Source: Pneumocystis sp. 'macacae'
Taxonomy: Eukaryota > Ascomycota > Pneumocystomycetes > Pneumocystales > Pneumocystaceae
Reading direction: 5' to 3'
Length of the DNA: 64,000 nt
Assembly: GCA_018127085.1 (NCBI GenBank)
Contig: CM030733.1
Span: forward strand, 496,001-560,000
Each line of letters opens with the position of its first letter. The stretch's first letter is position 1. This document shows, piece by piece, positions 11,337 to 16,876 of the stretch. Both the position numbers and the translations under genes were made by a program. The notes below the pieces were generated by a model. That model did no database searches and was not told the origin of the DNA. It saw nothing but the letters and a program-made list of their open reading frames with translations.

Positions 11337-13143
11337 ATGTTTTTATCGTATTCAAGATAAAACATTATTTTAAAAAAAAACGCTAGTAAGTCAAAGCAAA
11401 TAATATGCTTTGTTTTTTTCGTTATAGGAGCATCTTTGTTTTGCCTTTTCAGCATGGCTTTAGAAATATCCGATTTTATGTGTCTGTTCAAGAGGCCCCC
11501 AAAAAAACTACATTTGGAGGTAATTCTATATGATTAATAGGCCCTATTCAACCATATCTTTTATCTAGGCCTTAAGGACTATGATAGGATCTTCCAAAAC
11601 TTATACAGCCGCTATGATCCCAGCTTAAAATCTGCACAAAAACTAGGAGATTGGTATAAAACTAAAGAAATTTTACTTAAAGGACACGAATGGATTATTT
11701 CTGAGATCAAAGACTCAGGGCTCCGCGGAAGAGGAGGCGCCGGCTTTCCTTCCGGGCTAAAGTGGAGCTTCATGAACAAGCCGGGCTTTGAAAAAGACCG
11801 TCGTGCCAGATATCTTGTCATCAATGCTGACGAGGGAGAACCCGGCACATGCAAGGACCGCGAGATCATCAGGAAGGAGCCCCACAAACTCATCGAGGGC
11901 TGTCTCATTGCTGGCCGTGCAATGAATGCCACCGCCTGCTACATCTACATCCGCGGCGAGTTCTATAACGAAGCAACAATTCTGCAGTCTGCAATCAACG
12001 AGGCCTACAACGGTTTGCCCCCACCCATCTGCTGTCTCTAAACATGCAGCCGGGCTTATAGGTACAAACGCCTGTGGCTCCGGATACGACTTCGACATAC
12101 ATATCCATAGGGGCGCCGGCGCCTACATCTGCGGCGAGGAAACAAGTCTTATTGAGTCTCTCGAGGGAAAACAGGGAAAACCCAGACTCAAGCCCCCCTT
12201 TCCTGGCACCTCTCCCCCCTTCCCCTGCCTCTCTAACCTGTCTAGCCGATGTCGGGCTTTTTGGCTGTCCTACAACTGTAACAAACGTAGAAACGGTTGC
12301 CGTCGCCCCCACCATCTGCCGCCGCGGCGCCGCCTGGTTCAGCAGCCTTGGCCGCGAACGCAACTCCGGAACCAAGCTCTTCTGCATCAGTGGCCATGTC
12401 AACAACCCCTGCACTGTCGAAGGTATTCCCTCCTGCTGCTGACCAAATAACCGGCCAAATACCTGCAGAGGAGATGTCTATCCCCCTCAGAGACCTCATT
12501 GAGAGACACTGCCGCGGCGTCCGCGGCGGCTGGGACAATCTCCTGGGCATTATCCCTGGCGGCTCCTCTGTCCCAATCCTCAACAAAACCCAGTCTGAAA
12601 ACGTCCTTATGGACTTCGACTCCCTCAGAGACGCACACTCCGGCCTCGGCACTGCTGCTGTCATTGTCATGGACAAGTCGACTGATCTCATCAGAGCCAT
12701 CTCCAGGTTTTCTGCCTTCTACAAGCACGAGAGCTGCGGCCAGTGCACTCCGTGCCGCGAGGGAACCGCCTGGATCCACAGTATGATGCAGCGTCTCCAG
12801 ACCGGCTCTGCACACTCACGCGAGATCGACATGTGTGTCTGACTCTCTTTCCGCGCGCTGACTGCTGCAGGCTTTGGGAGCTGACGAAGCAGATCGAGGG
12901 CCACACAATATGTGCGCTTGGCGATGCTGCTGCATGGTATGTCTGTGCCTCTGTTCTGCTGACACGCAAAGGCCGGTGCAGGGGCTGATCCGCAACTTCC
13001 GCGGATACATAGAGGACAGGATCCGGGCGTCCCGTGCAGCGCCGCTGCCAACACACACGGACTGCGCACCCGACACGCATGCACCGTGTGCAGTGCACAG
13101 CGCCGCAACTGCAGAGCATACACGCACTGTACACAGCGTATAG
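11337..13143 (+). CDS. NUBM: NADH:ubiquinone oxidoreductase 51-kDa subunit (NDUFV1/NUBM)
   Basis: The FMN- and NADH-binding subunit of respiratory complex I, on its matrix arm. Eight exons read cleanly: 11337-11347, 11428-11519, 11569-12012, 12050-12205, 12246-12422, 12469-12832, 12871-12936 and 12972-13143. They total 1482 bases (493 residues), with each junction in phase. Signatures: LRGRGGAGFPSGLKWSFM (NADH/FMN loop), INADEGEPGTCKDREI, GAGAYICGEETSLIESLEG, VGLFGCPTTVTNVET, and the N3 iron-sulfur motif ESCGQCTPCREG with the fourth cysteine in HTICALGD. The N-terminus is a plausible mitochondrial presequence; exon 1 of 11 bases is the least certain part. Introns 3-7 are GC-rich and 35-46 nt; the one at 12206-12245 has a GC-AG donor. 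Base composition changes from AT-rich at the 5' end to over 70% G+C further on. The last 35 or so residues run into the purine-pyrimidine repeat. Confidence 0.93.
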
Positions 13144-13400
13144 CGCATACACTCCATATACCGCGCATACACTGCATATACTACGCATACACCCCACATA
13201 TAGTGCGTATACACTGCATATACACGCATATACTATGCATATATGCACAGCGCACACACCCATATGCAGTGCACTGTGCATACGGCACGCATACAGTGCG
13301 CATATAGTGTGCATACAGTGCATACACCCTATGCAGCGCATGTGCATGCACCGGAGACGCGGCGCACACACGCGCATATGTGCACCATGCGGGTCCGCAT
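13080..13400. repeat. alternating purine-pyrimidine CATATAC/CGCATAC repeat
   Basis: A degenerate repeat built from GCATATAC, GCATACAC and TGCATATATGCA units, almost strictly alternating purine and pyrimidine for about 300 bases, with many small palindromes. It begins inside the tail of the complex I gene and ends just before IPI1. Such sequence can adopt Z-DNA or cruciform forms in vitro. It lies at the centre of the GC-rich island. Confidence 0.8.
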
Positions 13401-13411
13401 GACGCTGCGCA

Positions 13412-14529: not shown

Positions 14530-14640
14530 CTAGGGCTGGATGGGCCAGGGCTAGGTTTTGTTTAATGCGGGCTAGGGCTGGGCTAGGGTCTGACAGGGTT
14601 AGGTTTGGGGTTAGGGCGGGCACCATCGAGCGGTCAGGGC
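14523..14640. repeat. degenerate telomere-like (T/C)TAGGG repeats
   Basis: Between the converging stops of IPI1 (14529) and the lysyl-tRNA synthetase (14640) the sequence is dominated by units such as GCTAGGG, GGGTTAGG and GGTTAGGG on the plus strand. The units are degenerate and irregularly spaced, about nine in 110 bases. The Pneumocystis telomere unit is known to be TTAGGG, so this is either an interstitial telomere-like tract or a GC-drifted 3' UTR. Confidence 0.65.
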
Positions 14641-16876
14641 TAGGGCTGCGGGTCGAGGGTGTCCGGTTTCTGGACGCGTAAGCGGGGGATGGAGAGCGGA
14701 CACACTTGCCATGGTGGGAAAGAGGAGGACCTCCTTGATGTTGGGCGAGTCGGTGAGGAACTGGGGCGTCAGCGGGGAAGGGGGGGAGAGGAGTACCATG
14801 ACGAGGCGGTCTATGCCCATGCCCCAGCCGCCGGTGGGAGGCAAGGCATATTCCCTTTAGAAGTAAGAGAGATGTAGAGGGGTGCAGGCAGGGGTACAGT
14901 GCGGTGCAGAAGTTCTCGTCGACCATCTGGACCTCGTCGTCGCCCTGGTCCCTCTGCCTGGCCTGTTCCTCGAATCTTGCGCGCTGCTCGACAGGATCGT
15001 TCTGCCGGGGTTAGGGCTAGGGCTAGGGGTGCAGGAGGGGCATGCCAGCTCGGTGTAGGCGTTTACGATCTCTTTGTAGGCCGTGAAGACTTCGAATCTT
15101 TCGCAGAGCCCAGGCTTGGATCTGTGGTGCTTTGCGAGGGGAGACATGACTTGAGGATGGCCTATCAGGAATGTCGGGTTGAGACAGAGGGGCTCGAGGA
15201 ACTCGCCGATAAGCTGCGGGATTAGTGTGTTTGGTGGGGAGGGGGTCTACCTTGTCGAGTAGTCTGGAATTGGTGGTGGGGGGAGGACAGTCGATGTTGT
15301 TTTTTTGACAGAGGTCCTTGAGGAACTGGTTGGTCTGCTCGGTATGGAGCTGGTCGGCAGGGGGGAAGGCGACACTGAGTCTTTGTTCGAGATAAGGGAT
15401 GATTTCTATTCGTCTCCATGGCTTTGAAAAGCTGATGCAGAGCTCGTCACCCTCAGGACCATTGGGGTGGTACTTGATTTGGTAGCTGCCAGTTAGTTTG
15501 TAGACCATGCTTGACAGCATTTCCTCAGTCATGTCCATTAGATCATATATATCGGCATAAGCACAGTAGAATTCACAACTTGTGAATTCGGGGTTATGTG
15601 TAAGGTCGATGCCTTCGTTTCTAAACTGCTTGCCGATTTCGTATACTCGGTTGAGGCCGCCGACAACCAGCATTTTCAGATACAGTTCGGGCGCGACTCT
15701 TAAATAAAGATTGAGGTCGAGTTCATTGTGATGGGTGATAAAAGGTTTGGCATTTGCTCCTCCAGCAATCAGATTCATCATGGGTGTTTCGACCTTGCCA
15801 CAATGAATACACTTGTTAAAAAGCTCATGTTACCTCTAGAAAATCAAGTGAATCTAAAAATGTTCTAATATACTGAATTACTTTGCTTCTCAAGACAAAT
15901 CTTTTAAATTAGAAAAAAACACAGATATTCAGAGCACAGGCATACTTGTCACGAGTGCTTTTATTAACAATAAGATCAAGATATCTTTGTCGATATCTTG
16001 TCTCCTGATTAGTTAAACCATGACGCTCCATTGGCAACATGCGGAGACAGGGACTAAGAAGAATAATTTCTTTACAAAATACGCTTAATTCCCCGCCCTC
16101 TCCCTCATCTTTTCCTTTGCCTTTAGGCATCGTGCGTCCCGGATACCCAATAACACCTACGATATCACCTCTTTGAATATACTCGTGCATCTTTAAATAG
16201 TCCTTGTCACAGTCTCTAAATATATTCATTAGTTTGAATACTTGGAAATTCTGCAATTCTACTGTGCTTGTGCCATAATCTGAACTTTTACTCCATTAGA
16301 ATAAAGATCATAAAAACGCAATTTTGAGCCTGATTCTCGCTTGTTTCTTATCCTTCCTGAAACACAAACAATGATATCTCTATTAACTTCTCCACGCTTC
16401 AAAGAACTATAAGTCCTAATGAACTCTGGTAGCTCAATATTAACATGAAATTTATGAGGATATGGATCTGGATTCTTAGATTTCCGCAGAGCATTGATAA
16501 CTCGTGAACGCAATTCAAAATATTGCTGTATAACTTTAGCATAACTCTAGTATATTTTTGTATTTAAAAATTCTACATTTGGTGTTAAATTTTCGCTAAT
16601 TTCAGAAACATTTGTCTGTTTGCATTCTGATGAAATAACTTGCGCCGCCTTTGCATCCTAAGATAAAATAAACCTGTTTCATGTTCTTTGAATGCATATA
16701 CAAACCCGTCTTGCATCTTTTTCCCTCCGTTTTAATCGTTTTTTTAGCTCTCTGATAAACATTAGTTTTTATTAAAAAAAAAGCAATTATCACGTTTTTG
16801 AGACATATTCGCCTGTAACATCGTCTAAACAAACATTTTTAATTTGTTCTACGACTTCTTCTTGTATTCCAGCCAT
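14640..16876 (-). CDS. KRS1: lysyl-tRNA synthetase (class II, cytosolic)
   Basis: Charges tRNA-Lys. The minus-strand protein begins at 16876 with MAGIQEEVVEQIKN, joined over an intron to the basic helix ELKKRLKRREKDARR of eukaryotic LysRS, then DPYPHKFHVNIELPEFI, the OB-fold (VSGRIRNKRESGSKLRFYDL; VGVIGYPGRT), class II motif 1 around QETRYRQRYLDLIVN, then GGANAKPFITHHNELD, LRVAPELYLKMLVVGG, motif 2 VYEIGKQFRNEGIDLTHNPE, and motif 3 GWGMGIDRLVM. The C-terminus ends SPNIKEVLLFPTMAKPDTLD plus a few residues at a TAG (14640-14642). At least nine short introns are needed. Two near the 3' end are GC-rich; the one at 15002-15045 has a GC-AG donor. The 3' third lies inside the GC island and the 5' part is AT-rich, a visible composition gradient along one gene. 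Confidence 0.93.
15002..15045 (-). repeat. telomere-like repeat inside a GC-AG intron of KRS1
   Basis: A 44-nt intron of the lysyl-tRNA synthetase gene, joining ..AYTEL to NDPVEQ. It contains on the plus strand GGGGTTAGGGCTAGGGCTAG, i.e. three consecutive (T/C)TAGGG units. Its donor is GC rather than GT. Confidence 0.7.

What the first reader, a model, noticed from the sequence alone, without database searches (positions are those of the whole stretch)
11690..15300. Sharply bounded GC-rich island in an AT-rich fungal genome
Hand counts give 46/60 G+C at 12301-12360 and 44/60 at 13921-13980, against 10/60 at 9541-9600. Exons, introns and spacers are all affected over about 3.6 kb. Established knowledge: GC-biased gene conversion at recombination hotspots raises G+C in exons and introns alike. 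Inference: this is such a hotspot, or a remnant of one, in a genome that is otherwise AT-driven. This is the most exceptional feature of the window.
Basis: partly seen in the sequence, partly recalled or inferred. Interest (0 to 1): 0.8.

Follow-up and report, generated by a model that had tools for sequence, protein, structure and literature searches.

The report
GC islands with mid-point strand flip
In a fungus that lives in macaque lungs, the AT-rich chromosomes carry dozens of spaced-out 4-kb GC-rich islands whose strands swap from C-rich to G-rich at the middle, which looks like the imprint of DNA breaks repaired again and again at fixed recombination hotspots.

Summary
The island is real (window 11712-15470, GC 0.60 against 0.30 around it) but not unique. 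The genome (Pneumocystis sp. 'macacae', 8.27 Mb) holds about 54 candidate islands by my count, on all 16 large contigs. The skew ignores gene direction (fourfold sites: C about 0.6 left, G about 0.67 right, for genes on either strand) and fades by about 3.3 kb.

The islands overlie ordinary genes; borders and some flips fall inside open frames, so they are not inserts. One tested gene (Rrn3) shows no GC pressure in four other Pneumocystis or Pneumocystis-like sequences. Short telomere-type (TTAGGG) arrays recur in the islands, mostly pointing outward.

Best explanation: persistent double-strand-break hotspots whose repair favours G on the outward strand about twice as strongly as C, and both over A/T: GC-biased gene conversion with strong strand asymmetry. 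Recombination was not measured. My searches found no report of such islands in Pneumocystis.

The parts
11712..15470 (.). GC-rich island, GC 0.60, C-rich left part and G-rich right part
   Evidence: maximal-scoring segment and block permutations; profile
14152..14152 (.). flip point: minimum of cumulative G minus C; uncertain by a few hundred bases; lies in the Ipi1 open frame, past its Pfam-matched stretch
   Evidence: Ipi1 frame
11568..12987 (+). NDUFV1 (51-kDa subunit of complex I), main exons found; left border of the island lies inside this gene
   Evidence: Pfam Complex1_51K; spliced protein aligns over 419 residues without a gap to 7zm7_B; coordinates
12206..12245 (+). NDUFV1 intron with GC-AG ends, C 0.53, G 0.10
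   Evidence: junction supported by the alignment
13080..13400 (+). alternating purine-pyrimidine low-complexity stretch, GC 0.53; similar stretches at 24 other places in the genome
13690..14529 (+). Ipi1-like open frame, GC-rich, spans the flip point
   Evidence: Pfam Ipi1_N E 3.9e-15
14530..14660 (+). seven G[CT]TAGG units, degenerate telomere-type repeats, intergenic, G-rich strand pointing outward
15002..15045 (-). KRS intron with GC-AG ends; holds a tandem CTAGGG/TTAGGG array on the + strand
14740..16513 (-). KRS (cytosolic lysyl-tRNA synthetase), main exons; right border of the island lies inside this gene
   Evidence: Pfam tRNA-synt_2; PDB match; spliced protein 90% identical to P. jirovecii

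Best explanation
Each island marks a persistent double-strand-break (meiotic recombination) hotspot. Breaks form near the flip point (inferred). The 5' ends are resected and the 3' ends copy the homologue outward for up to about 3 kb (established pathway, applied by inference). In that tract, correction of mismatches, and perhaps biased copying errors, favours G on the strand made outward, that is C on the 3'-overhang strand, favours C on the outward strand about half as much, and disfavours A and T equally (the base composition is shown; its cause is inferred). Repeated for a long time at fixed sites in an AT-driven genome, this gives a 4-kb island, C-rich left and G-rich right, over whatever genes lie there.
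For: 31 of 32 clusters read are islands and all 31 have the same polarity, each V deeper than 500 of 500 block permutations. Folded on the flip, the log bias is 1.57 (G) and 0.88 (C) at 1-1.25 kb, 0.82 and 0.39 at 2-2.25 kb, 0.25 and 0.10 at 2.75-3 kb, near 0 from about 3.3 kb; A and T fall together. Fourfold sites give the same bias for genes on both strands: left C 0.63 (+ genes, 517 sites) and 0.58 (- genes, 575), right G 0.67 (1019) and 0.68 (291), outside GC 0.30 (54) and 0.28 (323). Ordinary genes are overlaid and remain intact in the window. Protein make-up changes at the border within one frame: GARP/FYMINK 1.96 against 0.26 in Mon2, 4.47 against 0.38 in Tti1. The Rrn3 island is lineage-specific. 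Candidates are evenly spaced (CV 0.41 against 0.82 for random, 0 of 2000). A Spo11/TP6A_N match exists in the genome; PMC4764891 reports mating and meiosis genes transcribed in three Pneumocystis species (passage). A DSB-made mismatch in mouse cells is resolved with a 60-80% strand bias set by the break's processing (PMC9001825, abstract).
Against: No crossover, break, read or polymorphism data. Strand-symmetric biased conversion does not predict the asymmetry, so an extra, unproven step is needed. The molecular model is not settled: thymine excision at G-T mismatches gives the seen polarity only if other mismatches are restored to the overhang strand (reasoning). In the window's own KRS the lineage signal is weak (12:5 inside against 8:14 outside towards GC-type residues, Fisher 0.054; control pairs vary, and against S. 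japonicus identity is higher inside). L027 has an off-centre, ragged flip. The search for a shared word at the flip gave only G/C-rich words.
Confidence: 0.7

Rival explanations
1. Mutation rather than biased conversion: break repair at these sites is error-prone and the strand copied outward gains G (for instance G misinserted opposite T), giving GC rise and skew together.
For: The geometry is the same: the G-rich strands are the ones that would be copied outward. Bias for G and C decays together with distance.
Against: A mutator strong enough to lift GC from 0.30 to 0.65 against an AT-driven background would be extreme; no data here separate mutation from fixation.
Confidence: 0.15
2. The islands are replication origins; the skew comes from leading and lagging strand differences of forks leaving the centre.
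For: Polarity is that of an origin (G-rich to the right); even spacing.
Against: The skew ends with the GC rise at about 3.3 kb, whereas forks run much further; origins are not known to raise GC to 0.65 (recalled).
Confidence: 0.07
3. The islands are CpG-island-like bidirectional promoters whose skew comes from transcription and R-loops.
For: G4-type motifs lie on the G-rich strand only: left half 0 on + and 113 on -, right half 104 and 2, which also follows from composition.
Against: CpG observed/expected is the same inside and outside, 0.83 and 0.82. Skew is independent of coding strand. Flips lie inside the Rrn3, ubiquitin-hydrolase and Ipi1 frames.
Confidence: 0.04
4. Foreign insertion, transfer or chimeric assembly.
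For: Sharp change of composition.
Against: Conserved genes run through the borders; single open frames cross borders; 31 islands share one symmetric design. PMC7940399 assembled P. macacae from Nanopore and Illumina reads (passage). I saw no reads.
Confidence: 0.01
5. The islands are centromeres.
For: Recurrence on every large contig.
Against: PMC10327204 reports one centromere per chromosome with GC on average 3.9% below the genome in P. murina and P. carinii (passage); I count up to five islands per contig.
Confidence: 0.01

Closest known systems
GC-biased gene conversion islands of gerbils (Pdx1/ParaHox region and GC-outlier gene clusters; PMC7403616, PMC10210625, passages)
   Same: Lineage-specific runaway GC in ordinary genes, protein sequences altered, tied to recombination hotspots and to interstitial telomere sites
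   Different: Gerbil clusters are large; in the passages I saw, 'GC skew' means excess GC, and no flip between strands is described
Mouse DSB hotspots with a nucleotide skew that changes polarity at the centre (Smagulova 2011, recalled; not held)
   Same: Skew with a polarity change at the centre of a break hotspot
   Different: I recall no comparable GC rise there; here islands reach GC 0.65 and G or C about 0.6-0.68 at silent sites; I could not compare the sign
Fission yeast Rec12 hotspots (recalled)
   Same: Related fungus, widely spaced hotspots, no PRDM9
   Different: No GC island or flip known to me; not tested here
Interstitial telomeric sequences inserted at break repair in mammals (PMC7215372, PMC2246262, PMC8537989; listing abstracts)
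   Same: Short TTAGGG arrays at presumed break sites
   Different: Here the tandem arrays lie 0.6-2 kb from the flip and 20 of 22 point outward; insertion itself is not shown

Membership tests
GC-biased gene conversion hotspot island | G+C raised in exons, introns and spacers alike | tested here: met
GC-biased gene conversion hotspot island | genes continuous through the borders (not an insert) | tested here: met
GC-biased gene conversion hotspot island | absent or weaker at orthologous genes of sister species | tested here: inconclusive
   Rrn3: clear, at protein level; window KRS: weak; DNA of sisters not available
GC-biased gene conversion hotspot island | AT-to-GC alleles segregate in excess | not testable with these tools
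   no polymorphism data
GC-biased gene conversion hotspot island | crossovers or Spo11 breaks peak there | not testable with these tools
   only the presence of a TP6A_N match in the genome
GC-biased gene conversion hotspot island | G and C favoured equally on both strands (expected of the classical form, not a definition) | tested here: not met
   about 2:1 from 1 to 3 kb; fourfold sites
CpG island promoter | raised CpG observed/expected | tested here: not met
   0.83 inside, 0.82 outside
Replication origin | skew extends over the replicated arms | tested here: not met
   gone by about 3.3 kb
Pneumocystis centromere | GC below the genome, one per chromosome | tested here: not met
   passages of PMC10327204
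Interstitial telomeric sequence | tandem TTAGGG-type units inside a chromosome | tested here: met
   15 of 31 islands hold at least two tandem G[CT]TAGG units, the window outside the island none; genome-wide

The most novel reading that the evidence does not exclude
The islands are strand-resolved fossils of meiotic break repair: synthesis outward from a fixed break site favours G on the new strand about twice as strongly as C, so break position, tract length and the strand bias of mismatch correction can be read from a single genome. Displaced 3' ends of these new strands are at times extended by telomerase, leaving TTAGGG units that point outward on both sides.
Probability: 0.3. Interest if true: 0.93.

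Novelty: new variant of a known kind. Interest (0 to 1): 0.85.

Why it matters
Whether biased conversion treats the two strands of a repair tract differently is hard to see where hotspots move or are weak. Here the favoured base reaches about 0.6-0.68 at fourfold sites against 0.13-0.17 outside around a clear flip point, so tract length and strand bias become measurable from sequence alone, and the prediction that recombination peaks at the flips can be tested with isolates already sequenced. It also shows a probably non-adaptive force rewriting essential proteins: annotated Rrn3 of P. macacae is 37-44% identical to orthologues that are 62-90% identical to one another. Studies of host adaptation in Pneumocystis should mask these genes.

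Tried and rejected
Centromere, replication origin, CpG promoter and foreign insert were considered and rejected for the reasons given under rivals. Telomere-telomere fusion was rejected because the repeats run CCCTAA on the left and TTAGGG on the right, the opposite of a head-to-head fusion. Telomerase acting on the 3' overhangs of the first break was rejected for the same reason (20 of 22 arrays outward). Deamination of the overhang, and C insertion by Rev1 in the refilled strand, predict the opposite polarity (reasoning, no call). A common word at the flips was sought: the leading 6- to 10-mers are G/C-rich and also occur in the flanks; GCAGCCGC is in 16 of 31 centres against 1 and 10 of 31 flanks, which I did not follow further; 37 pairs of centre matches were found, of which I saw 15. 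The excess of TTAGGG as a single word is modest against other words of the same letters (120 against a mean of 62, maximum 138); the weight lies on tandem arrays, for which the reversed patterns give 0 hits. Intron branch points (CTAAC in C-rich introns) may explain part of the single words. The outward direction follows the G-rich strand, so it is not independent evidence. The Tti1 protein search found no relatives.

Rows set aside: 32 terminal telomere hits of 49; C19 (L038), a G/C-run cluster that is no island; homopolymer G runs and the near-end repeat when counting clusters. The count of 54 was made by eye from listings cut at 100 rows (one search is complete), so later contigs are less well covered, and the spacing test rests on it. 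11 of 39 interstitial telomere-type hits lie outside the 54.
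Full report
What was checked. The hand counts are exact and the island is sharply bounded: 11712-15470, GC 0.60 against 0.30 around it. The host is Pneumocystis sp. 'macacae': the Rrn3 frame of contig C5 matches PMAC_002479 at 100% over 59% of its length, and that record's contig has 556021 bases, the length of C5. The window is C14:496001-560000.

It is not alone. Searches of the window's own genome for G/C runs and one G/C-rich word and for DNA like the island show clusters on each of the 16 large contigs, 54 by my count by eye from listings that are partly cut. 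On those positions the gaps average 116 kb with CV 0.41 (random 0.82; 0 of 2000 simulations as even), the smallest is 30 kb, none lies within 49 kb of a contig end, and the number grows with contig length (rho 0.75).

The strand flip. I read 32 clusters: 20 of 10 kb, the window, 8 of 5 kb and 3 more (which also gave a second piece for C16). One, on the 10.8-kb contig C19, is no island. The other 31 all pass from C-rich on the left to G-rich on the right of the + strand, each V deeper than all of 500 block permutations. The piece of C16 first fetched held only the right half and failed alone (37 of 500); extended, it passed. Clusters were chosen without regard to skew, so 31 of 31 in one polarity is not selection (sign test 9e-10); the flip position itself is fitted. 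Strength varies: left skew -0.17 to -0.52, right +0.13 to +0.43. Folded at the flip, the log bias of G on the outward strand is 1.8 to 2.5 times that of C from 1 to 3 kb, A and T fall together, and the bias is near zero from about 3.3 kb.

Not transcription. Of 40 frames scanned had a Pfam match and 15 none. The matches are ordinary genes by my reading: Mon2, Tti1, an LSD1-like oxidase, Rrn3, Utp15, a ubiquitin hydrolase, p24, Cdc37, Gar1, TRF, ribosomal S12/S23, Snf7, MCM2 and others. At fourfold sites of the matched stretches the left half has C 0.63 in + genes and 0.58 in - genes, the right half G 0.67 and 0.68. The flip falls inside the matched stretch of Rrn3 (L022) and of the hydrolase (L021), and inside the Ipi1 frame of the window past its matched stretch. 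Two matched stretches (ribosomal S12/S23, EF-hand) lie at a flip and show no clear skew.

Not an insert. In the window NDUFV1 enters the island from the left and KRS from the right. Spliced, NDUFV1 aligns over 419 residues without a gap to complex I subunit 7zm7_B, and KRS is 90% identical to that of P. jirovecii. Two of the seven introns that I located begin with GC instead of GT, both where the coding strand is the C-favoured one; seven are too few for a test. Mon2 and Tti1 are single open frames across a border: GARP/FYMINK 1.96 and 4.47 inside, 0.26 and 0.38 outside.

Age. P. macacae Rrn3 has GARP/FYMINK 2.98; P. murina, P. carinii and two unnamed sequences have 0.36-0.55. These are 62-90% identical to one another and 37-44% to annotated P. 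macacae Rrn3 (41-47% for the open frame). So that island arose on the P. macacae side of these splits. PMC7940399 puts the split from P. jirovecii at about 62 million years (passage), but I cannot say that an unnamed sequence is P. jirovecii. For the window's KRS the signal is weak: identity to P. jirovecii 0.918 outside and 0.869 inside, changes towards GC-type residues 8:14 and 12:5 (Fisher 0.054); against P. wakefieldiae and P. carinii it is also lower inside, against P. canis nearly equal, against S. japonicus higher inside; control pairs vary in both directions.

Telomere-type repeats. Rotations of TTAGGG lead the over-represented hexamers of the outward G-rich strand (GGTTAG 118 against 14.2 under an order-2 model, TTAGGG in 34 of 62 half-islands), and successive TAGGG words are most often 6 bases apart. 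Genome-wide, GGGTTAGGGTTAGGG has 49 hits, 32 in two terminal arrays, and GGGCTAGGGYTAGGG has 22; the reversed patterns have none. Of 39 interstitial hits I place 28 within about 3 kb of one of the 54 clusters. In the 31 islands, 20 of 22 tandem arrays point outward, 2 inward (both in L027).

Mechanism. A central break with outward copying gives the right geometry: two new strands, right-hand top and left-hand bottom, up to about 3 kb long, both G-rich here. That the skew ends with the GC rise argues against forks from an origin. Whether G is gained by biased correction or by biased copying is open. The genome has a TP6A_N (Spo11-type) match above the family cut-off and UDG-family matches at two places; neither shows that the enzyme acts here.

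Literature. Searches listed no paper that describes GC islands or skew flips in Pneumocystis; most subscription papers are not held. I saw passages and short sections of PMC10327204, passages of PMC4764891 and PMC7940399, in which 'GC content' does not occur, not the whole texts. The nearest published case is the gerbil genome (passages).

Noticed in passing
window 27000-32500: Moderately GC-rich stretch (1-kb GC 0.31-0.43) without a clear skew flip; a weak or decaying island, or simply conserved genes.
   Followed up: partly
window 12206-12245 and 15002-15045: Two GC-AG introns out of seven located in the island, both where the coding strand is the C-favoured one.
   Followed up: partly
window 13080-13400: Alternating purine-pyrimidine stretch that looks like a TA repeat with many T-to-C and A-to-G changes; 24 similar places on other contigs, several in islands.
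   Followed up: partly
L038 (C19:5571-10570): Short contig with very strong one-sided G skew (to +0.84 per 250 bp) but little GC rise; not an island.
   Followed up: no
G000 C5:211 kb, C7:174 kb, C11:306 kb, C12:166 kb, C15:312 kb, C16:226 kb: Interstitial telomere-type arrays outside my 54 clusters; at C7 they point away from each other, as in an island.
   Followed up: partly
L022:4219-5994 (C5): The Rrn3 frame is open for 592 codons, but the deposited P. macacae protein has 347 aa: gene models in the islands may be poor.
   Followed up: no
C3:306, C4:553177, C8:480295, C10:472872, C13:6509, C15:374639, C16:10593 and 338694: One 17-base G/C-rich word recurs near contig ends, probably a subtelomeric repeat.
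   Followed up: no
window 10314-10724: Open frame with a run of about a dozen aspartates.
   Followed up: no
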